Source: an uncultured Fusobacteriaceae bacterium (GTDB lineage: Bacteria > Fusobacteriota > Fusobacteriia > Fusobacteriales > Fusobacteriaceae). From it: a stretch of 35,483 bases of DNA. The notes under the pieces were generated by a model, which was not told the DNA's origin, searched no databases, and worked only from the letters and a program-made list of their open reading frames with translations. Every line of letters begins with the position of its first letter. The first letter of the stretch is position 1. Location of the stretch: the NCBI GenBank assembly GCA_947038515.1, contig CAMQWJ010000017.1, positions 1-35,483 on the forward strand, written 5' to 3'. A program made the position numbers and the translations under genes. Positions 1-35,483 of the stretch are shown here, piece after piece.

Positions 1-54
1 ATAATTGTGGATTCTTATAATCCAAGAAGACTTTTTAAAATAGGTGGAGATTAA
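1..54 (+). CDS. 3' end of an unidentified gene (partial)
   Basis: An open frame enters from the left edge and stops at TAA 52-54. It encodes a 17-residue C-terminus ending in RLFKIGGD. It lies 65 nt upstream of the TssF-like gene on the same strand, so it is probably the previous member of the injection-system cluster. Too little is present to assign a family. Confidence 0.5.
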   Translation: MIVDSYNPRRLFKIGGD

Positions 55-119
55 AATATTTTGTGAAGAAAATTGAAGGTGTAGAATAAAAAAGAAAATG
101 AAGATTTGAAGGATGAAAA

Positions 120-1382
120 ATGAAATATGATAAAATAATTAATGAGAGTTTGAAAGAATTAGAAAAAGAGGAAAGAACTTTATTTAGAGAAAGCTCTCTT
201 GAAACTTTTGACATGTTAGAAAAAAATATAAAAAATAGAATGAATAATTTTGAAGCTAAAATTTTATCGTCAGGAAAGAAAAAAGGGAAATATTCAACTG
301 TTGTAAGTATTTTAGTTCCTCGAGAGGATTATTATTTATATGAGATGAAATTTAGTCCAATGTTGGATGAAGATATTGAAGAAATAAATCCTAATTTTTT
401 AAAATCAGAAGAAGAATTTTTTTTAAAAAAAATTCTTTTAGATATAGGGACAGAAGAAATATCCAAGTATGATAAGATGATTTTTAATGGAACTATTATG
501 GTAGGGGAAATAAAAGTAGATGTTCCTTTTAAGTTAGAACAAGATATTGAATATAAAGAAAAACTAAAAGAGCTTTATGATGTTTTTTGCTTAAATAATG
601 TGGGATGGAGAACTTGCAATATTCCTTATATCAACAAAGTATTTAAAGTAGTATTAACAGAATATCCTGTGGCATTAAAAAATATGGTTTTTTCAGAGCA
701 AGAAGAAATAAAAGTAGAGATAGAAATTAAAGAGTTGGAGAAAAAAATTATTAAAAATCACATTATTTTATGGAATATAAAAAAGAATGTTCTTGTAGGG
801 GCTGGAGATATTCATCCAACAAGAAATAGAATACATTCAGAGCATTATATGACTTTTGATGATGTTCAAAGTATGTATTTATGCCCAGAAGAACAGTGTC
901 ATATATATAATGTTGAAGAAAGAAATGATACAGTGGTAATAATAACAGATAGTTCTAAAAAAATAAAATGGAGATTTTTAAAGATACATGAGATAGATAC
1001 AATTACACTTTCCAGTTTAAAATATCCAGTGTTTGAAAATAAAATGAATGAGAACTTTTTGAATAAACTGAGAAAAGAATCTTGGTCAAGACTAAGAAAT
1101 ATAGGAGAAGTAAAAAGATTGATATATAGTTTTGAAAGTGTGGTAGAACGATTAGAATTGGAAAAAATAGAATTAGATTTGAAGTTTTCCGAAAAAATAT
1201 TAACAAAGGAATTGAATGGATTTATAGAGGATGAATTTAGTCTTAAAGGTAGAAAAAACAATATGATTCTATATTTTAAATTGAAGAAATCGGATATTTA
1301 TAGCTATGATACCTTAAACTTTATTTTATCTGAGTTACAACTATATTTTGCAGAATATAATTGTATAGGAATACTAGTATGA
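120..1382 (+). CDS. TssF-like baseplate protein of a divergent T6SS-like injection system
   Basis: A 420-residue soluble protein with no signal peptide or membrane segment. I infer a baseplate role. Residues about 325-420 carry a pattern like the end of TssF (DUF879): a short helical stretch, then a beta segment (MILYFKLKKSD), then a helix ending in LQLYFAEYNCIGILV, which resembles the TssF 'vL..ff..Y.siN.f' tail. It is shorter than typical TssF (about 600 residues), so it is highly divergent. The ATG at 120 follows a weak AAGGA. Its stop overlaps the next gene by ATGA, the arrangement often seen in tssF-tssG pairs. Family membership rests on faint similarity and context. A TssK-like or other baseplate protein is the main alternative. 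Confidence 0.45.
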   Translation: MKYDKIINESLKELEKEERTLFRESSLETFDMLEKNIKNRMNNFEAKILSSGKKKGKYSTVVSILVPREDYYLYEMKFSPMLDEDIEEINPNFLKSEEEFFLKKILLDIGTEEISKYDKMIFNGTIMVGEIKVDVPFKLEQDIEYKEKLKELYDVFCLNNVGWRTCNIPYINKVFKVVLTEYPVALKNMVFSEQEEIKVEIEIKELEKKIIKNHIILWNIKKNVLVGAGDIHPTRNRIHSEHYMTFDDVQSMYLCPEEQCHIYNVEERNDTVVIITDSSKKIKWRFLKIHEIDTITLSSLKYPVFENKMNENFLNKLRKESWSRLRNIGEVKRLIYSFESVVERLELEKIELDLKFSEKILTKELNGFIEDEFSLKGRKNNMILYFKLKKSDIYSYDTLNFILSELQLYFAEYNCIGILV

Positions 1383-2110
1383 TAAAAAAAGACTATAGCT
1401 ATTTATGGTATCCATTAACTAATCTTGTAGAAGTAGATAATGATAGAATAAAATTTAAAATATCTTCAACAATATCTCCATATATTGAGCTTAATTTAGA
1501 AAATTTGACTAAATTATCCTTGGAGTTAAAAAGTGAATTTTCTAATAATGAAAAAATAGAGATAGAAATAAATCCATTTTTAAGATTTCCAGAACTTTTT
1601 TATTTTTTGAATAATCCAGACTTAAGAAAATCTAAAACTAAATTAAAAGAAAATTTATCTAATTTAATTTTTCACTTTTTAGGTAATATTGATTTATATT
1701 TAGGGCAAAATAGAAAAGATATAATAGTAAAGGAAATTATAAAAGATATTGAAAATAATTGTTTTGGAGAAAAAAGTAAAAATTTATTTGTTCTTTTTAA
1801 GGAGTATGAAAAATATATGGTTGCTGATATAATTTGTTCTATGTATGAGCAGTTAGGTATGATAGACTCTTTTAGGAAAGTAGTTAAGTTAGTGTTTAAA
1901 GATTCAATAATTTATGATAGGTTATCATCGGACACAAACTTAGTTTTATATTTGAATTATCCAAAAAGTAAAAGAAATTTAGGCAAAGTAGAATTTATAA
2001 AAGAAATTTTTTTACCATTAGGTTTAAAATTAGATATATTTTGGGAAAATCATTTTGGAGTAATTGATGTGGATATAACAATGAAAGTTGGGGAAATTGC
2101 AGTGTTTTAA
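1379..2110 (+). CDS. TssG-like or other baseplate protein (tentative)
   Basis: A 243-residue soluble protein rich in Lys, Ile, Leu and Asn. I chose the ATG at 1379 because it overlaps the stop of the preceding gene (ATGA), indicating translational coupling. An upstream TTG at 1361 is less likely. The C-terminal part has a helix then a beta segment (EIFLPLGLKLDIFW), resembling the wedge-type ends of gpI/TssG-like tail proteins, but no diagnostic motif is present. The TssG assignment comes mainly from position directly after a TssF-like gene and before the sheath gene. It could be another wedge component specific to this system. Its last codons contain a possible promoter for the sheath gene. 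Confidence 0.35.
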   Translation: MIKKDYSYLWYPLTNLVEVDNDRIKFKISSTISPYIELNLENLTKLSLELKSEFSNNEKIEIEINPFLRFPELFYFLNNPDLRKSKTKLKENLSNLIFHFLGNIDLYLGQNRKDIIVKEIIKDIENNCFGEKSKNLFVLFKEYEKYMVADIICSMYEQLGMIDSFRKVVKLVFKDSIIYDRLSSDTNLVLYLNYPKSKRNLGKVEFIKEIFLPLGLKLDIFWENHFGVIDVDITMKVGEIAVF

Positions 2111-2116
2111 TATAAT
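2088..2116 (+). promoter_or_regulatory. Possible sigma-70-type promoter for the sheath gene
   Basis: TTGGGG (2088-2093), a 17-nt spacer, then a perfect TATAAT (2111-2116). It sits at the end of the TssG-like gene and ahead of a 134-nt gap, so it could start a separate sheath/tube transcript. AT-rich sequence makes chance matches common, so this is tentative. Confidence 0.35.
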
Positions 2117-2244
2117 TGAGAAAGGGGGCTTTCAATATTAATAAAAAAAGTAGAAAAGTCTCTTGAATTTTTAAAGAGAAAGTAGTATGCTTAAAGTAGG
2201 GGATTAAAGGAAAAAAGTTATAAAAAAAACTAGAGGAGTTGAAT

Positions 2245-4389
2245 ATGGCAAAAAAAATATTTGAACAAACAAATCGGACGATGCTTTTTGAAGAAGTAAA
2301 TCCAGAAAAATTAGACATTTTGACATTAATAGGTAGTGGAAAAGGATTGACAAGTTTGGATGATGAAAAAATTAATGAGATTCATCATCATTTATTAGTA
2401 AAAAGTTTTGACGAATTTTTAGAGAAGTTTGAACCTAAAGTATTTAGTTTTTTCAATGCGAGTAATCAAAAAATTAAATATAGTTTAGAGAAGCCACAGG
2501 GTATACCAGAAAATGCGATAACTGAAATCCCTTTAGGAATGGATAATACCTTATTTAAAATGTTATCAACATTAATAGATAGTAAAAAAGCAGCAGGAAG
2601 TAAGAATGTAGATTTTGATTTTGCAAGTATTTTAAATATGTTATCACCAAAAAAAGTAATGGATGATATTAAGCAATTAAGAAAAGAAATTTCATATTTA
2701 CATGAAAAATATGAAAATTTAGAAGATGCAGATCCATTAAAATTAGAATATGGTGATAAATTAAATATTAGTTTTGATAAGGCAAGTCAAAATTATAATA
2801 ATATTTTAGGAATGTTACCGTTAGCAATTGAAGATATAAAATCTAGAATTTTAATTGGACAAAGTGACGGTGACAAAAAATCAGAAGAAATAAAAATAGG
2901 TATGCTTACAATGGATGAGCATGGAGAATTAAAGATAATAGAAAATAAAAATAGAAAAACTAAAGAGTTGTCTATTGTGGAGCAAAAAAGTCAATCATTG
3001 GCTAAATATTTTGAAGAAGATTATGAAATAGTAAATGAAGATCCAAATGATTATATAAAAAGTTTAGTGGTTAGAACTTTTGCACCTATGGCAACATTGA
3101 GCGAAGACGTAAATATTCCTCAAGAGATAAAAAATTATAATAGTTATCTAACTTTTTATAAGGATGCACAAGAAGATTTTATAAAAACAATCAAGCCTTT
3201 ATTAGAAAAGATGATAGGAATAAAAGTATTTTTTGAACAATATGATAAAGATTTGAAAGGAATGAGACCCTCATTAATAATAACGAATATAAAATTAGAA
3301 ATGCTATTAAAGGGTGAAAACAAAAATTCTCTAGAGCTATATTTAAATACAGTTAACCAAAAAAATGACTTTGAACATACAGTATGGTTTGGAATAGTTC
3401 CATCATTACATTTGGAAGAGGCTGAAAAGAAGAAAGGTAGAGCTATTTTTGCAGGTACAAATAAGGTTGAAAAATTAAAAGGAAACACAATAGAAAATTT
3501 ACAATTACTTATGTCTATTTTATGGAAATATAAGGTTCATACATTCTTTAGTGTAAGTGGAAGTGACGAAACAACATTTAATAATTTAGCAACAATAGGT
3601 GTAGAGAAATATGTTGAAAAAACAAGAAATCTTCAATATAGAGAATATTCAGAATATTTAATTCCATGTATGCCTAATTTTACAATAATTCCAAAAGAGA
3701 AATCAAGTGTAATTTTGGACTATAAACTACTTTTAGATGAATCGGAACTAGCTCAAAAAGATAAAGAAAATATAGTTAAGTTTTGGATAGAGGGAGTATA
3801 TATAGAGGGGTCATATGTAGCGGCAGGAGTAACAGCAGCTTATCAATGTCCTGATTATTTGAAAAAGAGATATAAAAAAGTAGATATGCAAGGTCCAGGA
3901 GTAAGAATAAATATAGAAAGTCATGATAATATAGCAAAAATAACAACAACTATGGCAAAAGAAATCACAGGTTATACAGTAGCCACAAAAGATAGTATAA
4001 ATAGAAATAATTTTGGATTTATTTTTTCATCAGATAATATCCAATCAAATGGGAAGACAGTGAGTACTATAACAGTCTATAAAGCAAGAACTTTGGCAAC
4101 AAATGAAGATGGAATATTTGAACCTTTATATAAAACATTAACAACAACATTTATTGAAAGAACATTAAGATTTATGACAACAGATTTTAAAGAAGATAAA
4201 GTAAAAGATTTCTTTAGTAACAGACCAGATAGTCAAAAAAATAAATGGTTAAACAGTCAAAATAATATTAATTCAATAATGCAAGAAGGTGATGATATAT
4301 CAATGGGAATAGAAGGAAATGATTGCTACTTACATATTAACTTTAATGGAGATATAAAAAATCTAACAGTTGATATAACAAAAAATTAA
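2245..4389 (+). CDS. T6SS/CIS contractile sheath protein, TssC-like, unusually long
   Basis: A 714-residue protein, the probable contractile sheath subunit. The C-terminal two thirds look like TssC/VipB. Around residues 510-540 is GVYIEGSYVAAGVTAAYQCP; around 605-650 an arm with VYKARTLATNEDG and a helix FIERTLRFMTTDF; and the last 60 residues form a beta domain (CYLHINFNGDIKNLTVDITK) like the end of TssC. TssC proteins are near 490 residues. The extra 200 or more N-terminal residues carry segments (KIKYSLEKPQGIP; VDFDFASILNMLSPKKVMDDI) loosely like the beta strand and 'fdd.l..i.P' motif of TssB, so a natural TssB-TssC fusion is possible but unproven. The start is ATG 2245, six nt after GAGGAG; the in-frame TTG at 2239 is too close to that site. 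The hcp-like gene follows 51 nt later. Confidence 0.75.
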   Translation: MAKKIFEQTNRTMLFEEVNPEKLDILTLIGSGKGLTSLDDEKINEIHHHLLVKSFDEFLEKFEPKVFSFFNASNQKIKYSLEKPQGIPENAITEIPLGMDNTLFKMLSTLIDSKKAAGSKNVDFDFASILNMLSPKKVMDDIKQLRKEISYLHEKYENLEDADPLKLEYGDKLNISFDKASQNYNNILGMLPLAIEDIKSRILIGQSDGDKKSEEIKIGMLTMDEHGELKIIENKNRKTKELSIVEQKSQSLAKYFEEDYEIVNEDPNDYIKSLVVRTFAPMATLSEDVNIPQEIKNYNSYLTFYKDAQEDFIKTIKPLLEKMIGIKVFFEQYDKDLKGMRPSLIITNIKLEMLLKGENKNSLELYLNTVNQKNDFEHTVWFGIVPSLHLEEAEKKKGRAIFAGTNKVEKLKGNTIENLQLLMSILWKYKVHTFFSVSGSDETTFNNLATIGVEKYVEKTRNLQYREYSEYLIPCMPNFTIIPKEKSSVILDYKLLLDESELAQKDKENIVKFWIEGVYIEGSYVAAGVTAAYQCPDYLKKRYKKVDMQGPGVRINIESHDNIAKITTTMAKEITGYTVATKDSINRNNFGFIFSSDNIQSNGKTVSTITVYKARTLATNEDGIFEPLYKTLTTTFIERTLRFMTTDFKEDKVKDFFSNRPDSQKNKWLNSQNNINSIMQEGDDISMGIEGNDCYLHINFNGDIKNLTVDITKN

Positions 4390-4390
4390 T

Positions 4391-4417
4391 AAAGAATTTT
4401 ATTATTAAAAATTCTTT
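4391..4417 (+). other. RNA hairpin between sheath and tube genes
   Basis: A perfect 10-bp inverted repeat (AAAGAATTTT at 4391-4400 and AAAATTCTTT at 4408-4417) with a 7-nt loop. No U-tract follows, so it is more likely an mRNA processing or stabilising hairpin protecting the downstream tube mRNA than a terminator. Confidence 0.4.
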
Positions 4418-4440
4418 AACATAAAAAAGGAGAGTGTATT

Positions 4441-4878
4441 ATGGGATTCGAAGTAAAAATTAAGGGGAAAGAAGAGATTAATTTAAAGCAGGAGAATATT
4501 TCAACGGTAAAATTTATCTCTGATACTCCTAATGATTCAAATGCGAGAGCAAGTGACTTGGGAGTAGGGATAGAAATTAAAGGTAAAATATTAACACCTG
4601 TAAGTGGAGAAGAAGCAGATGATACAAAAAAACTTGGTAAATGGTCATTAGTTCCAGCAGAAAGTTCTGATGCTTATAGAACAATGAATTTGAAAGTAAT
4701 TGCTGGAAGTGTTGTAGTAAGAGAGATTGATTTCTCTAATTCTTTTGTAGTTGATTATACAGAAGACTATAATGAAAAAGGTGGAGTTGGAGAGTATACT
4801 CTTGTAATAAGACAGAAAAAAGAAAAATTAACAGATATTAAATTTGAAGGTGGTTATGCTTCTACTAATGAGCAATAA
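4441..4878 (+). CDS. Hcp/TssD-like inner tube protein
   Basis: A 145-residue beta-rich protein, the probable stacked-ring tube inside the sheath. The segment DFSNSFVVDYTEDYNEKG followed by an alternating strand (YTLVIRQKKEK) resembles the conserved end of Hcp/TssD proteins, especially the Bacteroidetes-type form in which an 'f.dayvv.Y.E.f' motif precedes the last strand. N-terminal residues (MGFEVKIKGKEEI) also form a beta strand. Length is close to Hcp (about 130-170). A good AGGAGA precedes the ATG. It is flanked by a stabilising-type hairpin upstream and a terminator downstream, as expected for a protein needed in high copy. I am fairly sure it is a tube-type protein and less sure of the exact family. 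Confidence 0.7.
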   Translation: MGFEVKIKGKEEINLKQENISTVKFISDTPNDSNARASDLGVGIEIKGKILTPVSGEEADDTKKLGKWSLVPAESSDAYRTMNLKVIAGSVVVREIDFSNSFVVDYTEDYNEKGGVGEYTLVIRQKKEKLTDIKFEGGYASTNEQ

Positions 4879-4881
4879 TTA

Positions 4882-4917
4882 AAGTAAAAAGGAGAGAATA
4901 AAACCTCTCCTTTTACT
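4882..4917 (+). terminator. Intrinsic terminator after the tube gene
   Basis: An inverted repeat with arms AAAAGGAGAG and CTCTCCTTTT, extended by AAGT/ACTT around one bulged A, with loop AATAAAAC. A moderately T-rich tail follows. It lies between the tube gene and the TssK-like gene, so it probably reduces expression of the downstream genes relative to the tube. Confidence 0.6.
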
Positions 4918-4950
4918 TATTAGTTATAGTAGAAAAAAAAGAGGTGTAAA

Positions 4951-5718
4951 ATGATAATAAAAAATAGAAGTCCATTATTTAAGAGAGGGACAATACTAGA
5001 TAAAGAAATATTAGAGTATTTAAGAAATGATGTACGTGAATATTTTGATATGAAGTATAAAAAAAACTCTATAGGAGTAATAGAAGGATTTGATGTTGGG
5101 GTAAAAGAAGAAGTCCTACATGTGGAAGAAGGAATCTTTAAATGGGATGGAAAAACATATAAATTGTCAAAATTGATTAATATAGATATACCAGAAAAAG
5201 ATGGAGATTATTATTTAAAAATTAAATTTCATGAAGAGAAAGAATTAGGAAAATTTCTTTGTAATTATTTTGAAATTGTTTTAACAACAGAAAAAGTAGA
5301 AAAAAATGAATTGGAACTAGCTCGTATAAAGAAAAGAGAGGGAGCTGAAATACGGAATTATCAAAAATATCAAGGAATAGATAAAGAATATAATCAAATA
5401 AATATAATTCATCAACTTCAAAGTACAAAAACAGGAACAAGTCTAAATTATAAGATTTTAAAATTATTTTCCCAAGAGATGTTAAATGAAAAAGAATTGT
5501 TAGAGTTGGATAAAATTATATGTTTTATGATTCTAGAAGAAAAGTTTGAACGTGAATCTTTAAATAAATATCTATCTGAAAAAATAAATATAGAGAGTGA
5601 AGAGTTATCTTCAGAAGATATTTATATTATACTTGAAAAAATATTGAGAAATAGTAAAAATAGAAAAAATATAATAAAAAATAATTTTAAAAGTAAAAAT
5701 AAAATAATGGTGGAGTGA
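4951..5718 (+). CDS. TssK / phage receptor-binding-protein-like baseplate adaptor (tentative)
   Basis: A 255-residue soluble protein. The N-terminus (SPLFKRGTILDKEILEYL) followed by a beta region (VIEGFDVGV..EVLHVEEGIFKWDGKTYKL) is like the opening of TssK and of phage tail-fibre connectors, where a protein announces its first contact and then describes a 'value at' beta shoulder. The C-terminal half is predicted helical, very Lys/Glu/Asn rich, and ends in a basic tail. TssK is about 445 residues, so this could be a reduced version or a different adaptor. The start is the ATG after GAGGTG. Only 3 nt separate it from the J-domain gene, so the two are probably co-translated. No membrane segment was seen. 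Confidence 0.35.
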   Translation: MIIKNRSPLFKRGTILDKEILEYLRNDVREYFDMKYKKNSIGVIEGFDVGVKEEVLHVEEGIFKWDGKTYKLSKLINIDIPEKDGDYYLKIKFHEEKELGKFLCNYFEIVLTTEKVEKNELELARIKKREGAEIRNYQKYQGIDKEYNQINIIHQLQSTKTGTSLNYKILKLFSQEMLNEKELLELDKIICFMILEEKFERESLNKYLSEKINIESEELSSEDIYIILEKILRNSKNRKNIIKNNFKSKNKIMVE

Positions 5719-5721
5719 TAA

Positions 5722-6156
5722 ATGAGAAGTTTATATGAAATTTTGGAAATACAAGAAGATGCAACAAATGCTGAAATTAAAAATAAATATAGAGAATTAG
5801 CAAAAAAATATCACCCAGACCGACATAGCAACCTTGATGAAAAAAGTAAAAAAGAATTCGAAAGAAAGTTTATTGAAGTAAGTGATGCTTATTCAGTTTT
5901 ATACGATGCAGAAAAAAGAAAAGAATATGATGTTCTTTTAAAGAGAAATACAGGAAAAACAAAAAAAGAAAACAGAGGAAGTTCACCGAATTATTCTGAT
6001 ATAAACGATATATTTTCAAAAAATGGAATGAATAATATGTTTGGAAATTATTTTAATCAAAATAAAAATAAGGAGAATAAAGAAGATAAACAAATGAAAG
6101 AAAAAGTGAATAATATGTTTGACTCATTTTTTACAATGAAAAAAGGGGGGAAATAA
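5722..6156 (+). CDS. Small J-domain protein linked to the injection system
   Basis: A 144-residue protein. Residues 1-70 form a clear J-domain: LYEILEIQEDATNAEIKNKY, then helix II, the invariant HPD at 31-33, and helix III with FIEVSDAYSVLYDAEKRKEYD. J-domains bind DnaK and stimulate its ATPase. The remainder is low-complexity, rich in Asn and Lys with Met/Phe patches, and lacks Gly/Phe and zinc-finger regions, so this is a type III (specialised) J-protein distinct from the full DnaJ at 22014. It is tightly packed between the TssK-like and FHA genes (the FHA ATG directly follows its stop). I infer that it brings DnaK to sheath, baseplate or FHA-protein assembly. The J-domain itself is certain; the role is not. 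Confidence 0.85.
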   Translation: MRSLYEILEIQEDATNAEIKNKYRELAKKYHPDRHSNLDEKSKKEFERKFIEVSDAYSVLYDAEKRKEYDVLLKRNTGKTKKENRGSSPNYSDINDIFSKNGMNNMFGNYFNQNKNKENKEDKQMKEKVNNMFDSFFTMKKGGK

Positions 6157-6819
6157 ATGATTTTTACTAAAGAGTGGGAGTTAAGTCGAGAAATAAAAAG
6201 ACATAAAAGAAAAAAATTAGATAAAGGCATATTTAGATATTCTAAAAAAGTTATGGTATCAAGTATTGTATTTTTACTATTAGTATTATGGTATTTAAAT
6301 TATGAAAACTATTCAAAAGAGAGTTTAATAACTGTATATGGAATAATAGTAGGAATAGTAATAATAATTCTATTTTATAGTAATATAAAGTTAAAAAGAC
6401 AGATAATATTATATGAACAATCACAAGCAGTAAGAGATAATAGAATTGTTCAACAAATAGAAGATAAACAGGAAATCAGTAGAAACGAAATATCAAATAT
6501 AATACTAAAAAATGATGAAGGATATGATATCAAGACTTGGAGTGTTGGTAAAATGGATTCTTTGGTAATAGGAAAAAATTCAAGAGTAAAAGTAGATATA
6601 GATTTATCAAACTGTAATTATTCACAAATAATTAGCAAGAAACATGCAATGTTAAATAAAACTGATAATGGTTGGTATTTAGAAGATTTAAATTCAAAAA
6701 ATGGAACTGGAATATCAAGGTTATCGGATAATAGAAAATTAAAAGTGAAAGATTTACCAGTAAAAGTTCAAAGTGGTGATACAATTTATATTGGACAAAC
6801 TGCATTATTATTAAAGTAA
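6157..6819 (+). CDS. Membrane-anchored FHA-domain protein
   Basis: A 220-residue protein. A basic N-terminus (about 1-30) is followed by two hydrophobic segments (about 31-48, VMVSSIVFLLLVLWYLNY, and 56-77, with VYGIIVGIVIIILFY), so it should be a hairpin membrane anchor with the C-terminal domain in the cytoplasm. Residues about 125-220 are an FHA phosphothreonine-binding domain, with an IGKNSR strand, SKKHAML, and LEDLNSKNGT. FHA proteins (Fha/TagH) regulate or scaffold many type VI systems, usually with a Ser/Thr kinase, and no kinase is seen here. The ATG abuts the J-domain stop and has a strong GGGGGG site inside the J-domain gene's end. It is the last gene of the cluster. Confidence 0.85.
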   Translation: MIFTKEWELSREIKRHKRKKLDKGIFRYSKKVMVSSIVFLLLVLWYLNYENYSKESLITVYGIIVGIVIIILFYSNIKLKRQIILYEQSQAVRDNRIVQQIEDKQEISRNEISNIILKNDEGYDIKTWSVGKMDSLVIGKNSRVKVDIDLSNCNYSQIISKKHAMLNKTDNGWYLEDLNSKNGTGISRLSDNRKLKVKDLPVKVQSGDTIYIGQTALLLK

Positions 6820-23307: not shown

Positions 23308-26300
23308 ATGAAAAAAAAGAAATTAAATAATCGGTTGAAAAGAATAAGCTTTATAACTTCACTTTTTGTGATTAGTGCAAGTATGGGGTATGGAATAGAT
23401 GTAGTAGAAGATTTTGTTAATGAAGGAAGTATTTTAGTAACAGAAGGAAATGGGATTGATTTAAAAAGAGAAGGAATAAATATAACAAATAGTGGAACGA
23501 TCTCAAGTGTTACTAGTAGTAATGTTAGTCCTGGTAATGGAATAAGTAGTACTAGTACTATAGGAACTATAACAAATAGTGGTAATATATTTGGTAGTGC
23601 TGTTGTTGATAGTGATGCTGTTGGTGTCAGTTCAGCAAATGGAATAAGTAGCTACAGTAATGGTAGTAGTAGTACTATAGGAACTATAGTAAATAGTGGT
23701 AATATATCTGGTAATGTTGTTATTTATAGTGGTACTATTGGTAATAGTTCAGGAAATGGAATAAGTAGCGATAGTTTTAATCATATTAATAATAGTACTA
23801 TAGGAAATATAATAAATAGTGGTAATATATTTGGTAATATTGCTGCTCTTAATGGTAGTGGTATGGAGTCCAATTCAGGAAATGGAATAAGTAGCTACAG
23901 TATTAGTGTTATAGGAAATATAACAAATAGTGGTAATATATTCGGTAATACTGTTATTTCTGATGGTGGTAGTAGTAGAGGTGTTGTAGGAAATGGAATA
24001 AGTAGCTATAGTCTTCGTGGTGGTAGTAGTAGTAGTATAAAAAATATAACAAATAGTGGTAATATATCTGGTAATGTTGTTAATTCTGGAGGTAGTATTC
24101 TTGATAAGAATTCAGGAAATGGAATAAGTAGCTATAGTTTTCGTAGTAACAGTAGTATAGGGAATGTAACAAATAGTGGTAATATATCTGGTAATGTTGT
24201 TAATTCTGACGGTAGTCTTCTTGATAAGAATTCAGGAAATGGAATAAGTAGCTATAGTTTTAATAATATTAGTAATAGTACTATAGGAAATATAATAAAT
24301 AGTGGTAATATATCTGGTAATGTTGTTGATTCTAATGGTAATATCCTTGATAAGAATTCAGGAAATGGAATAAGTAGCGACAGTTTGAGTGGAAAAACTA
24401 TAGGAAACATAATAAATAGTGGGCTTATAAAAGGTTCTAACCAAGCTATTAAAGGTGATTTTTCCTCTCTTAATAATTATGGAATACTAGTCGGGGAAAC
24501 TATTGTTGATCTTGGTGCAAATTTGAATAATAATGGAATTATGATTACTTTAAAAACTGATAATTCTGGAGAAATAAGTACAATTGGAAATGGAACTGGT
24601 GGAGAAGTAACACTAGCTGATGGAAACAAAAAAACTGTTATGAATGGAACAGTTACAGGAAAAGATAGTTCTTTACTCTCTTCTGATTTAATAGGAGTAG
24701 ATAATTTAATAATAAATGGTGCAGGAGTAGATAAAGGTGCTCTTGTTATTGATCAAAATACAATTCTAACAGGAAGTATTGTTAATGGATATAACACCGC
24801 TGTGTATTTAGAGGGAACTAATAAATTGACAGCAACAGATACGATTTTTAATGGTGGTGGATTTAAGAATGATATTACAGTTATAAAAGGAGATTCAGGA
24901 GATAATGAGATATCTTTAAATGGTACTTCTATTATCAATGGTAGTGTGAATTTAGGAGATGGAAACGACACTCTTTTACTAGATAATACTACTCAAATAA
25001 ATGGGGTCTTAAATGGCAGTTTAGGTAACAATGATACTTTAGGTTTAGGGCAAAACACTACAACTAAAACAACTACAAACTTAAATATTTTACACAATAT
25101 ATCAGGATTTGAAACAATTAATACAAATGGAAATGTAACTCTATTTGAAACTATTAAAGTTACAGATGCAGATAGTATTAATTTAGAAAGTGGAAATTTA
25201 ACATTAAGAGTAGACCCAACTAAGGTGGATACTGACGGAAAAATAACAGGTCATGCTCTTTATGAAAATACAGGAACCTTAAATTCAACAGGTGGAAACT
25301 TAGTTATTGGATTAAATGGACTTGGAAAAAATGCAATTGTTTCTATGGGTGGAACAACAATAACTCAAAACACCAATGATTCATGGTGGAAAGATAGTGA
25401 TCATCTGACAACTAATTCATTAGTTTTAGATGCTAAACTTTCAGCAGATGGAAAAGATGTTACTATAACAGTAAAAGAAAGTCTTCCATTGGGACCCGGA
25501 ACACCAGTAGTGCCAGGAACACCAGTAGTGCCAGGAACACCATTAGAACCAAGCACACCAGTAGTGCCAGGAACACCATTAGAACCAAGTACACCAGTAG
25601 TAAATGACTCTGAATTATATAATAGATTAAATGAAGTGTATAAATCCATCGTAAATTCAGGAGAGATAGGAGTTTTAGCAAATACGACTCTAATAGACTC
25701 TGTAGCTGGTGACTCATACTTAGAAACGGTAAATGGAAGTACAGGAAAGACTTTTGAAGAATCTTTAGGTGGTCTATTAACAGTATTAGATCAAATCTAT
25801 GCAAATAATCCATATGCTTACACACTAAAATCATCAAGAGATAGTTTGAAATTATTTGAAGATAATATGTCATACTTAACAATAAAGCCAGAAGCTAAAG
25901 AATGGCTAGTTCAAGGAAGAGCAATTTATACAGGAGTAAAAAATGATAATGAAGCTTCAGGAAAAAACTATTATGGTTTTGATACTGATCATAGAAATTA
26001 CAATACAACAACAAATACAATAGGTGGATTAGCAACATTAGAGTATGGAGTTTCAGATAAAACATCAGTAGGTTTAGTCTTAGGAGGAAATAATCAGCAT
26101 ATAAATTTTAAAGGAACAAGTAAAATAGATGGAAATTCATTGTATGTAGGAACATTTATAAAGACAGAGATAAATAAATTTAAACTTATGTCCGGATTGG
26201 GTTATCAGTATACCTCAGCTACAGCTGAAAGAGGAGTATCAAATGAATATAATTCTTTTAGAACAAGTGATAAATATGATATAAACTCATTCAATACATT

Positions 26301-26778
26301 TGTAGAAGCAAAATATCTATTAGCATCAGATAAGCAGTGGAAAGTAGAACCTAAAATACGTTTAAGCTACTATTATGTGTCACAAGATAGAGTAAATGAG
26401 GGTTATACACCGAGTCAATTGTCAATAGAAGTGGATAAAGCAAATAGTAATACAGCAGATGTAGAAATAGGTATAGACTTTACAAAAGAAGTACTATTAA
26501 GTAGAGGAAAACTAAATAGTATAATATCAGTAGGGGTAATAAATACATTAGGTAACAAAGAAAAATCATTAGAAGGAAATATTATAGGAAAAGATAAAAA
26601 CGGAAGTAAATTTGAAATTAAAGGAATTGAATTACCAGGAACTGCTGGAAAAGTATCATATGATTTAGAGTATGAGCAAATAAATGGAATGATATATTCA
26701 GCAGGAGTAGACTTTGAATTTGCAAAAGATTACAATAGAAATATTAATGTAACACTAGGAATGGGATATAAGTTTTAA
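23308..26778 (+). CDS. Type Va autotransporter adhesin-like protein with repetitive passenger
   Basis: An 1156-residue secreted protein. A long signal peptide (about 1-30, ending SMGYG) is followed by a passenger with about nine repeats of about 36-42 residues, each opening NSGNI(S/F)GN and containing SGNGISSYS and (T/S)IGNI. This is the Gly/Ser/Asn-rich form that folds as a beta-helix. A Pro-rich linker (PGTPVV/PSTPVV units, about 730-765) precedes a helix and the C-terminal beta-barrel (about 865-1156), which ends in GMGYKF. The barrel exports the passenger across the outer membrane, so a role in adhesion or surface interaction is likely but not shown. The ribosome site is AAGGAGG. Confidence 0.9.
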   Translation: MKKKKLNNRLKRISFITSLFVISASMGYGIDVVEDFVNEGSILVTEGNGIDLKREGINITNSGTISSVTSSNVSPGNGISSTSTIGTITNSGNIFGSAVVDSDAVGVSSANGISSYSNGSSSTIGTIVNSGNISGNVVIYSGTIGNSSGNGISSDSFNHINNSTIGNIINSGNIFGNIAALNGSGMESNSGNGISSYSISVIGNITNSGNIFGNTVISDGGSSRGVVGNGISSYSLRGGSSSSIKNITNSGNISGNVVNSGGSILDKNSGNGISSYSFRSNSSIGNVTNSGNISGNVVNSDGSLLDKNSGNGISSYSFNNISNSTIGNIINSGNISGNVVDSNGNILDKNSGNGISSDSLSGKTIGNIINSGLIKGSNQAIKGDFSSLNNYGILVGETIVDLGANLNNNGIMITLKTDNSGEISTIGNGTGGEVTLADGNKKTVMNGTVTGKDSSLLSSDLIGVDNLIINGAGVDKGALVIDQNTILTGSIVNGYNTAVYLEGTNKLTATDTIFNGGGFKNDITVIKGDSGDNEISLNGTSIINGSVNLGDGNDTLLLDNTTQINGVLNGSLGNNDTLGLGQNTTTKTTTNLNILHNISGFETINTNGNVTLFETIKVTDADSINLESGNLTLRVDPTKVDTDGKITGHALYENTGTLNSTGGNLVIGLNGLGKNAIVSMGGTTITQNTNDSWWKDSDHLTTNSLVLDAKLSADGKDVTITVKESLPLGPGTPVVPGTPVVPGTPLEPSTPVVPGTPLEPSTPVVNDSELYNRLNEVYKSIVNSGEIGVLANTTLIDSVAGDSYLETVNGSTGKTFEESLGGLLTVLDQIYANNPYAYTLKSSRDSLKLFEDNMSYLTIKPEAKEWLVQGRAIYTGVKNDNEASGKNYYGFDTDHRNYNTTTNTIGGLATLEYGVSDKTSVGLVLGGNNQHINFKGTSKIDGNSLYVGTFIKTEINKFKLMSGLGYQYTSATAERGVSNEYNSFRTSDKYDINSFNTFVEAKYLLASDKQWKVEPKIRLSYYYVSQDRVNEGYTPSQLSIEVDKANSNTADVEIGIDFTKEVLLSRGKLNSIISVGVINTLGNKEKSLEGNIIGKDKNGSKFEIKGIELPGTAGKVSYDLEYEQINGMIYSAGVDFEFAKDYNRNINVTLGMGYKF
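23470..24440 (+). repeat. Degenerate tandem repeats encoding the passenger
   Basis: Units of about 110-125 nt, each containing AATAGTGGTAATAT followed by a TCAGGAAATGGAATAAGTAG-like block. The last three or four are the most alike (ATTCTTGATAAGAATTCAGG and close variants), which points to recent duplication or ongoing recombination inside this gene. Confidence 0.8.
25496..25605 (+). repeat. 18-bp tandem repeats in the Pro-rich linker
   Basis: Near-identical units CCAGGAACACCAGTAGTG and variants with CCATTAGAACCAAGC encode PGTPVV, PGTPLE and PSTPVV. Unit length is a multiple of three, so slippage would change linker length without a frameshift. Confidence 0.8.
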
Positions 26779-34022: not shown

Positions 34023-35483
34023 ATGAAAAAGTTAATATCATTATCATTGTTACTATTTTTAATAGGTTGTGGAAAAGCAGTAGATATTTTACAGGAACGA
34101 AATGGAGTAAAGTTTGAAATAAATAGTACAACTCCTTATACAGGAAAATTCAAAGAAAATCATTCCAATGGAAAATTAAAGAGTAAAGGAAATTATAAAA
34201 ATGGAAAAGAAGAAGGAGAAGCTAAATATTATTATTACACAGGTAAGTTAGAGAGGGAAGAAAATTATAAAAATGGAAAACGAGATGGAGTGACTAGAGT
34301 TTATTATTATACAGGTAAGCTAAATAGTGAATTGAATTATAAAAATGGGAAACGAGACGGAATGGCTAGACTTTATTATTATAATGGGAAATTAGAGCAG
34401 GAATTAAATTATAAAAATGGAAAAGAAGAAGGAGTATATAAATGTTATTTAAAAACAGGTAAGTTAAAGAGTGAAGAAAATTATAAAAATGGAAAACGAG
34501 ATGGAGTGGCTAAATATTATTCTGACACAGGTAAGTTAAAGAGTGAAGAAAATTATAAAAATGGAAAACGAGATGGAGTGGCTAGATATTATGAGTACGC
34601 AGGTAAGTTAAAGAATGAGTTAAATTATAAAAATGATGTAAAAGAAGGAGTGTATAGAACTTATTATGACACTGGGGAATTAAAGGCTGAAGAAAACTAT
34701 AAAAATGATGAAAAAGAAGGAGCGCGCAGAGCTTATTATGCCAGTGGTAAGTTACAAGAGAAAGCAAATTATAAGGATGGGAAACGAGATGGAGTATATA
34801 AAGGTTATTATACCAATGGTAAGTTAAAGTGGGACGAAAATTATAAGAATGGAAAAGAAGAAGGAGTATTTAAAGAGTATTATGAAACTGGTCAGCTAGA
34901 GAGGGAAGAAAATTATAAGAATGGTAAAGGAGTAGGAGTGGATAGAGCTTATTATGCTAGTGGTAAGCTAAGGTGGAAATTAAATTATAAAAATGGAGAA
35001 AAAGAAGGAGTATGCAAATATTATTATTATACAGGTAAGTTAGAGAGGGAAGAAAATTATAAAAACGGAAAATTAGAAGGAGTGCGTAGAATTTATTATG
35101 CCAGTGGTAAGTTAAAGCAGAAAGAGAATTATAAAAACGGAAAAGAAGAAGGAGTATTTAGAAAGTATTATGAAACTGGTAAGTTAGATGAGGAAAAAAA
35201 ATATAAAAACGGAAAATTAGAAGGAGTATTTAAAGAGTATTATGACACTGGTAAATTACGTGAGGAAAAAAAATATAAAAACGGAAAATTAGAAGGAGTA
35301 TATAAAGATTATTATTATGACTCAGGTAAGTTAGATGAGGAAAGCAATTATAAAAATGGTAAGTTAGATGAGGAAAGCAATTATAAAAATGGAAAACGAG
35401 AAGGAGTGCATAGAACTTATTTTGAAAATGGTAAGTTAGATGAGGAAAAAAAATATAAAAACGGAAAATTAGAAGGAGTATTT
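34023..35483 (+). CDS. Repetitive MORN-like (YwqK-type) lipoprotein, open at the right edge
   Basis: At least 487 residues with no stop before the window ends. The N-terminus is a lipoprotein signal (MKKLISLSLLLFLIGCGK, lipobox LIGC, lipidated Cys16). A short linker (about 20-45) leads into about 18 repeats of 23-24 residues of the form YKNGKxxGxxxxYYxxGKLxxExN. This is the MORN-variant of the YwqK antitoxin-like family, which makes a long beta-solenoid. The repeats differ mainly at exposed positions (KEEG, KRDG, KLEG). An 11-residue part-unit (GKLDEESNYKN) is duplicated near 35320-35390. It would be attached to a membrane and face outward. Its role is unknown. The ribosome site is AAGGAG. 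Confidence 0.85.
   Translation, partial: MKKLISLSLLLFLIGCGKAVDILQERNGVKFEINSTTPYTGKFKENHSNGKLKSKGNYKNGKEEGEAKYYYYTGKLEREENYKNGKRDGVTRVYYYTGKLNSELNYKNGKRDGMARLYYYNGKLEQELNYKNGKEEGVYKCYLKTGKLKSEENYKNGKRDGVAKYYSDTGKLKSEENYKNGKRDGVARYYEYAGKLKNELNYKNDVKEGVYRTYYDTGELKAEENYKNDEKEGARRAYYASGKLQEKANYKDGKRDGVYKGYYTNGKLKWDENYKNGKEEGVFKEYYETGQLEREENYKNGKGVGVDRAYYASGKLRWKLNYKNGEKEGVCKYYYYTGKLEREENYKNGKLEGVRRIYYASGKLKQKENYKNGKEEGVFRKYYETGKLDEEKKYKNGKLEGVFKEYYDTGKLREEKKYKNGKLEGVYKDYYYDSGKLDEESNYKNGKLDEESNYKNGKREGVHRTYFENGKLDEEKKYKNGKLEGVF
34110..35483 (+). repeat. About 72-bp tandem repeats in the MORN-like gene
   Basis: Units of 69-72 nt share AATTATAAAAATGGAAAA followed by a GGTAAGTTA block. The array continues off the right edge. 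One partial unit of about 33 nt is duplicated at about 35328-35393, a sign of slippage or unequal recombination that kept the frame. Confidence 0.85.

What the first reader, a model, noticed from the sequence alone, without database searches (positions are those of the whole stretch)
1..6819. Divergent T6SS-like contractile injection system with J-domain and FHA partners
Sheath (TssC-like) and tube (Hcp-like) proteins sit beside likely baseplate proteins, but sequence similarity is low and gene sizes differ from textbook T6SS: TssF-like 420 residues, TssK-like 255, sheath 714. Contractile injection systems of this kind in Fusobacteriota are, as far as I know, poorly described. Two regulators or assembly factors (J-domain, membrane FHA) are built into the operon.
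Basis: partly seen in the sequence, partly recalled or inferred. Interest (0 to 1): 0.72.

Follow-up and report, generated by a model that had tools for sequence, protein, structure and literature searches.

The report
T6SS-like injection machine with Hsp70 partner
The window holds about half of a gene cluster for a phage-tail-like, spring-loaded protein injector, related to but clearly different from the type VI secretion system, which is shared by Fusobacteriota and Gram-positive Clostridia and carries an Hsp70/J-protein module where known systems use the ClpV ATPase.

Summary
Window 1-6819 holds seven co-directional genes. The 714-aa protein's predicted fold matches the T6SS sheath (VipB), the 145-aa protein is Hcp-like, and the 420-aa protein's fold matches TssF; a J-domain protein and a membrane FHA protein are confirmed. 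The rest lies on other contigs of the same genome: zinc-ribbon FHA, PP2C/TPR, Ser/Thr kinase, an Hsp70-class ATPase, VgrG, three PAAR-like (DUF4280) proteins and effector-like genes. The set occurs in 34/98 Fusobacteriota and in Clostridium and Lachnospiraceae, where one continuous cluster holds nearly all of it. DUF4280 and the Hsp70-like ATPase co-occur with the sheath (Fisher p about 1e-18). TssM and ClpV are absent (0/98); no relative was found in phages, plasmids or viral contigs. [quoted passage not shown] this looks like the missing machine. Best explanation: a membrane-anchored contractile injector of a new T6SS-like type, with the Hsp70/J pair assembling or recycling the sheath (inferred). 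TssK and TssG assignments remain unproven, and no experiment shows contraction. New variant of a known kind.

The parts
1..54 (+). 3' tail of a repeated lipoprotein-like ORF (ends ...IIVDSYNPRRLFKIGGD); two further copies lie on contig C22 of the same genome. The assembly breaks in this repeat
   Evidence: window 1-99 matches C22 9248-9347 and 11713-11812 at 93%
120..1382 (+). TssF-like baseplate protein, 420 aa
   Evidence: AlphaFold model pTM 0.72; best PDB fold match TssF-size chain of 6n38, next hit far weaker; 15-member family
1388..2110 (+). conserved partner of the TssF-like gene, 240 aa; TssG-like by position only
   Evidence: almost always directly after the TssF-like gene; no profile match to TssG
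2245..4389 (+). single-chain contractile sheath protein, 714 aa, TssC/VipB-like; N-terminus possibly TssB-like
   Evidence: fold match VipB 5myu prob 1.00; N-terminal 205 aa x TssB is the best of 70 profile pairs (E 0.0026), again best of 60 with a larger alignment (E 0.006), but weak
4441..4878 (+). Hcp-like tube protein, 145 aa
   Evidence: Pfam TssD E 9.4e-5, 12/27 members match TssD and nothing else; PDB Hcp1 6bdc E 0.014
4882..4920 (+). stable hairpin directly after hcp
   Evidence: z -3.3; strong hairpins of unrelated sequence at the same place in 4 of 5 other loci tested
4951..5718 (+). conserved 255-aa protein 'F9', candidate baseplate protein in the TssK role (role inferred only)
   Evidence: co-conserved in Fusobacteriota and Clostridia; no match to TssK
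5722..6156 (+). short J-domain protein, 144 aa, HPD motif intact
   Evidence: Pfam DnaJ E 1.4e-20; HPD in every homologue inspected
6157..6819 (+). membrane FHA protein, two predicted TM helices then FHA, 220 aa
   Evidence: Pfam FHA E 3.3e-12; TM 29-47 and 56-74

Best explanation
The window carries the sheath, tube, two or three baseplate-type genes, a J-protein and a membrane FHA protein of a contractile injection machine of a new T6SS-like type. It most likely works like a T6SS. A TssF-like baseplate sits on the cytoplasmic membrane, where the two-TM FHA protein and the TM-bearing PP2C/TPR proteins are the only conserved membrane proteins and so the likely anchor. A VgrG-like hub tipped by a DUF4280 PAAR-like cone with effector attached nucleates an Hcp-like tube, and a single-chain TssC-like sheath polymerises around it, contracts and drives tube, spike and effector out of the cell. 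Kinase, phosphatase and two FHA proteins would gate firing by Ser/Thr phosphorylation, as PpkA/PppA/Fha do in some T6SSs (established knowledge). The Hsp70-class ATPase with its dedicated J-protein would take the place of ClpV, remodelling contracted sheath or chaperoning sheath, tube and spike assembly. Shown here: folds or families of the main parts, conserved synteny, co-occurrence, absence of TssM and ClpV. Inferred: contraction, anchoring, phospho-control, chaperone role, antibacterial purpose.
For: Sheath fold, TssF fold, Hcp profile, VgrG, DUF4280. Nearly the same gene order in many Clostridium and Fusobacteriota loci. Sheath and DUF4280 together in 31 genomes, 3 and 3 with one alone, 61 with neither (p 1e-18); Hsp70-like only in sheath genomes, 28/28 (p 5e-19). 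Hsp70-class ATPase: HHalign to Hsp70s E 1.8e-9, prob 96% over 208 columns, against 9e-5 for MreB and nothing for ten Tss families. J-gene and intact Hsp70-like motifs go together, and both are missing from one clade of nine small genomes. Effector-like cargo beside DUF4280: lipase-like gene in the own genome, RHS/AHH nuclease and Imm11-type gene in Clostridium.
Against: Fold matches are single top hits with TM-scores below 0.5 (models pLDDT 69 and 76). No sequence-profile link of the sheath C-terminal part, TssF-, TssG- or F9-family to canonical Tss proteins, though the same method also fails for Hcp against proteobacterial Hcp. No TssE or TssK identified. The contig join C22-C17 is inferred. 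One clostridial genome (L008) keeps J with a degenerate Hsp70-like protein. The J/Hsp70-motif co-loss is one evolutionary event. Nothing experimental.
Confidence: 0.82

Rival explanations
1. It is an extracellular contractile injection system or tailocin-like particle, assembled free in the cytoplasm and released by lysis, rather than a cell-anchored T6SS-like machine.
For: Hcp, sheath, VgrG/GPD and PAAR-type parts are common to both kinds; no TssM was found, and Gram-positive lineages are otherwise known for tailocins and eCIS (own knowledge).
Against: Conserved membrane proteins inside the core (TM-FHA, TM-PP2C/TPR); kinase/phosphatase/FHA control as in T6SS; best folds are T6SS VipB and TssF; several scattered VgrG/DUF4280 effector cassettes per genome, typical of T6SS; no lysis or tail-fibre genes recognised in the clusters.
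Confidence: 0.12
2. It is a domesticated or active prophage tail.
For: Sheath, tube and GPD-like hub are phage-tail parts; one uncultured phage protein is a weak fold match of the sheath model.
Against: No sheath relative in 50,697 phage records, 72,556 plasmids or the IMG/VR contigs scanned; no capsid, terminase, portal or integrase next to it in the window; conserved chromosomal synteny across two phyla.
Confidence: 0.03
3. The machine is as proposed, but the Hsp70-like/J pair is an assembly or effector-loading chaperone (or, in one clade, a structural pseudo-ATPase) and does not replace ClpV; contracted sheaths are recycled by a general protease or not at all.
For: One clade keeps the Hsp70-like protein with its ATP motifs gone and J lost, so the protein can have a role without ATPase activity; the protein is long (about 880 aa) with extra parts outside the ATPase domain.
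Against: In the other lineages ATP motifs and J-protein are kept together, and no ClpV is present.
Confidence: 0.45

Closest known systems
Type VI secretion system type iii of Bacteroidota
   Same: Pfam TssD (PF17642, the Bacteroidota-type Hcp model as I know it) is the only family hit of the tube protein; type iii also lacks TssL and TssM homologues (PMC8632748); DUF4280 proteins are discussed there too (PMC11854122)
   Different: Single-chain sheath instead of TssB plus TssC; TssF-like protein of 420 aa instead of about 600; no ClpV; dedicated Hsp70-like ATPase and J-protein; two FHA proteins with PP2C/TPR
Type VI secretion system type i (E. coli, Pseudomonas)
   Same: VipB-like sheath fold, TssF-like fold, Hcp, VgrG, PAAR-type tip, FHA/kinase/phosphatase control (TagH, PpkA, PppA)
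   Different: No TssM (0/98 genomes), no ClpV over cut-off (0/98), no separate TssB, no recognised TssE or TssK; present in monoderm Clostridia
Francisella FPI T6SS (type ii)
   Same: DUF4280 PAAR-like tip (IglG; PMC5014421)
   Different: Different gene set; no Hsp70/J module there as far as I know (own knowledge)
Orphan DUF4280 (PAAR_H2) and Phage_GPD genes of Firmicutes
   Same: These are the spike genes of the present clusters: DUF4280 next to GPD-type VgrG, in 9/9 clostridial sheath genomes tested
   Different: PMC8651086 saw no eCIS or T6SS genes around them and speculated about an unknown translocation system; PMC5349215 raised the same possibility
eCIS and R-type tailocins
   Same: Shared phage-tail ancestry: sheath, tube, hub, PAAR-type tip
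   Different: Membrane-anchored regulators in the core here; T6SS-type best fold matches

Membership tests
T6SS (any type) | Hcp tube protein | tested here: met
   Pfam TssD in 12/27 homologues, best 1.6e-5; the window's own copy is just under the cut-off; PDB Hcp1 E 0.014
T6SS (any type) | TssC/VipB-type contractile sheath | tested here: met
   Fold match only: 5myu prob 1.00, E 1.8e-3, TM 0.45 to target; no sequence-level match
T6SS (any type) | separate small sheath subunit TssB | tested here: not met
   No separate gene recognised in the conserved clusters; a TssB-like N-terminus of the sheath is suggested, weakly
T6SS (any type) | TssF baseplate protein | tested here: met
   Fold match 6n38 prob 0.84; none by sequence profile
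T6SS (any type) | TssG, TssK, TssE baseplate proteins | tested here: inconclusive
T6SS (any type) | VgrG hub | tested here: met
   Own genome C19 3055-4623: TIGR03361 E 9.5e-9 (below its cut-off), Phage_GPD 35.4 bits over its cut-off
T6SS (any type) | PAAR or PAAR-like tip | tested here: met
   Three DUF4280 genes over cut-off in the own genome, 34/98 in the phylum
T6SS (any type) | ClpV (TssH) recycling ATPase | tested here: not met
   TIGR03345 over its cut-off in 0/98 genomes; own genome has only short weak matches
T6SS type i | TssM (IcmF) membrane protein | tested here: not met
   PF06761 in 0/98 genomes; control E. coli rings
T6SS type i | TssJ and TssL | not tested
   No dedicated genome search was made
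prophage / tailocin | relatives in phages; capsid, terminase or lysis genes nearby | tested here: not met
   No sheath relative in phages, plasmids or viral contigs; neighbours are hut and housekeeping genes
Hsp70-class ATPase (contig C22 gene, not in the window) | Hsp70-type ATPase domain with phosphate-1 and phosphate-2 motifs | tested here: met
   IDFGTANTTAG and IDCGGGTTDL; HHalign to Hsp70 E 1.8e-9, prob 96%
eCIS | defining eCIS genes (AAA+ Afp15-type ATPase, LysM tube protein) | not tested
   Not searched specifically; none surfaced in the Pfam scans of the proteins examined

The most novel reading that the evidence does not exclude
A new, fifth type of T6SS-like machine that spans diderm Fusobacteriota and monoderm Clostridia: a single-chain (TssB-TssC-fused) sheath, a reduced baseplate, an anchor built from FHA and PP2C/TPR membrane proteins, and an Hsp70/J chaperone engine in place of the ClpV Hsp100 ATPase, making it the first T6SS-like injector of Gram-positive bacteria.
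Probability: 0.45. Interest if true: 0.93.

Novelty: new variant of a known kind. Interest (0 to 1): 0.83.

Why it matters
T6SSs are described from Gram-negative bacteria, yet spike genes (DUF4280, GPD) with no known delivery machine have been noted in Gram-positives (PMC5349215, PMC8651086). This cluster supplies the sheath, tube and baseplate that go with them, in organisms that can be cultured (C. beijerinckii, Cetobacterium), so the question becomes directly testable. A contractile machine that uses Hsp70/J rather than an Hsp100 unfoldase would be a new mechanism for making or recycling such springs, and a monoderm version would show how an injector works without TssJLM and an outer membrane.

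Tried and rejected
Pfam, NCBIfam and PHROGs on the seven window proteins: only TssD, DnaJ and FHA informative. VipB family search of the own genome: no match. PDB sequence searches with profiles of sheath, TssF-like and F9: nothing relevant. HHalign against single E. coli IAI1 Tss proteins and then against ten alignments built from E. coli and plasmid-borne T6SSs: no support except sheath N-terminus x TssB; even Hcp x Hcp failed, so these nulls say little. The two TssB alignments use different registers, so the fusion idea stays a suggestion. BL21 was tried as a T6SS reference but has lost the cluster. Prophage and plasmid origin rejected. The archaeal label of L002 rejected: its sheath falls inside the Fusobacteriaceae clade, so the contig is probably misbinned. 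Searches were coordinate or handle errors and gave no result.
Full report
Observation. Downstream, after 319 bases, comes an unrelated histidine-degradation operon, and further on hrcA-grpE-dnaK-dnaJ. The window starts at the first base of contig C17 of a 1.78-Mb, 23-contig genome, so the left part of the operon is cut by the assembly.

The missing half. A profile of the Hsp70-like family from relatives finds its member on contig C22. C22 (11,954 bases) encodes, in order, a DUF4280 protein, 275- and 113-aa proteins, a zinc-ribbon FHA protein, a PP2C/TPR membrane protein, a kinase, the Hsp70-like ATPase (883 aa), and a 303-aa and a 576-aa protein with an Hcp-like domain, each followed by a copy of a lipoprotein-like ORF. 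The end of that lipoprotein ORF is also bases 1-54 of the window (93% over 100 bases), and C22 ends inside the start of a further copy. The contigs therefore very probably join through this repeat; relatives G059 and G062 have a matching order, Hsp70-like, extended Hcp, a 330-aa gene, TssF-like, TssG-like. Two more contigs carry satellite cassettes: C13 with a lipase-like protein and DUF4280, and C19 with a 657-aa DUF4280-ended protein and a VgrG.

What the parts are. The tube protein hits only Pfam TssD (12 of 27 homologues) and weakly Hcp1 in the PDB. The sheath has no family hit, but its AlphaFold model (25 sequences, pTM 0.71) has one outstanding PDB match, the VipA/VipB sheath (prob 1.00, E 1.8e-3; next prob 0.28). 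The 420-aa model (pTM 0.72) has one outstanding match, a TssKFG baseplate chain of TssF size (prob 0.84, E 1.2e-3; next E 0.46). TM-scores are below 0.5 in both, so these are family-level pointers and not close structural identities. VgrG is supported by TIGR03361 and Phage_GPD, PAAR-like tips by DUF4280. The 240-aa gene is TssG-like only by position and the 255-aa gene TssK-like only by guess: profiles are null.

One chain or two. In known T6SSs the sheath is a TssB-TssC heterodimer. No separate TssB is seen in any of the clusters. Of 70 profile pairs tested, the sheath N-terminus against TssB scored best (E 0.0026), and again best of 60 with a wider alignment (E 0.006). Corrected for the number of tests this is only suggestive, and the two alignments differ in register. 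The fusion is a hypothesis.

The Hsp70/J module. The ATPase carries IDFGT.NTTAG and IDCGGGTTDL motifs in most members. HHalign against an Hsp70 alignment built from the same genomes gives E 1.8e-9 and probability 96% over the ATPase domain, against 9e-5 for MreB and 0.25 or worse for ten Tss families. The J-protein has an intact HPD in every homologue inspected. In the loci where both could be read, those with intact ATPase motifs have the J-gene in the cluster; nine small-genome Leptotrichiaceae-like genomes (family f4) have lost both, and these nine form one clade (support 0.999), so this is one co-loss, not nine. L008 is an exception with J and degenerate motifs. ClpV is absent over its cut-off in all 98 Fusobacteriota, and the source genome lacks even a full-length ClpB-like match.

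Distribution. Sheath: 34/98 Fusobacteriota (one is a remnant, G027). DUF4280: 34/98; both in 31, Fisher p 1e-18; Hsp70-like in 28, all with sheath, p 5e-19. Shared ancestry inflates these p-values, but presence and absence cut across genera. TssM: 0/98. In Clostridia 9 of 393 evenly drawn genomes have the sheath. Six of eight clostridial clusters read through have the order sheath, one or two Hcp, J, TM-FHA, Zn-FHA, PP2C, PP2C/TPR, TssF-like, TssG-like, Hsp70-like, 255-aa gene; the other two differ by a J gene moved upstream (L009) and an uncalled Zn-FHA gene. VgrG, DUF4280 and effector-like genes follow, including an RHS protein with an AHH nuclease domain. All nine clostridial genomes tested have DUF4280. 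Sheath relatives were not found in 50,697 phages, 72,556 plasmids or the viral contigs.

Mechanism. The most economical reading is a membrane-docked contractile injector, phospho-regulated, with VgrG/DUF4280-linked effectors. A strong hairpin after the last hcp gene, unrelated in sequence, in five of six loci tested fits a need for excess sheath and tube protein, since it separates them from the genes for less abundant parts; that is inference. The Hsp70/J pair is either the sheath recycler or an assembly chaperone; I cannot separate these.

Known or new. [quoted passage not shown] The passages of PMC8632748 read here describe types i to iii and the Amoebophilus system, none from Firmicutes or Fusobacteria. 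Ten literature searches found no description of this cluster; the library lacks preprints and most subscription journals, so prior description cannot be ruled out. It works like a T6SS; it fails two defining features of type i (TssM, ClpV) and is therefore filed as a new variant, not as a member of a known type.

Noticed in passing
window 4882-4920: Stable hairpin right after the hcp stop codon (z -3.3); hairpins of unrelated sequence occupy the same place in Cetobacterium and three of four other loci tested.
   Followed up: partly
L060 8834-9301 and 11305-11766; window 1-54: Repeated lipoprotein-like ORFs (92% over 681 bases), interleaved with extended Hcp-domain proteins; possible immunity or accessory genes. 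The assembly breaks here.
   Followed up: partly
L060 7764-8675 and 9559-11289: 303- and 576-aa proteins with an Hcp-like domain and long extra regions; similar extended Hcps occur in G059, G060, G057 and Cetobacterium. They may be Hcp-linked cargo.
   Followed up: no
L065 1818-3617 (contig C13) and L066 3-1976 (contig C19): Satellite effector-like cassettes: lipase-like gene plus DUF4280, and a 657-aa protein ending in DUF4280 next to a VgrG.
   Followed up: partly
L047 5897-7942 and L049 7259-9301 (also G078, G084, G085, G093-G096): One clade of nine small genomes keeps the Hsp70-like protein without its ATP motifs and without the J gene, and no TssF/TssG-like gene was recognised by profile there.
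   Followed up: partly
L002 1-12266: Contig labelled Candidatus Methanovirga (archaeal MAG) carries the system and groups inside the Fusobacteriaceae sheath clade; probably a misbinned contig.
   Followed up: yes
L170 (G390): A clostridial genome with two tandem sheath genes, each followed by an Hcp gene.
   Followed up: no
genome G000: No full-length ClpB/ClpV-type Hsp100 match in a genome rated 100% complete, while a congener (G001) has one.
   Followed up: no
window 23308-26778 and 34023-35483: A 1156-aa autotransporter-like protein with repeats, and a repeat-rich lipoprotein (YKNGK-type repeats) running off the right end of the contig.
   Followed up: no
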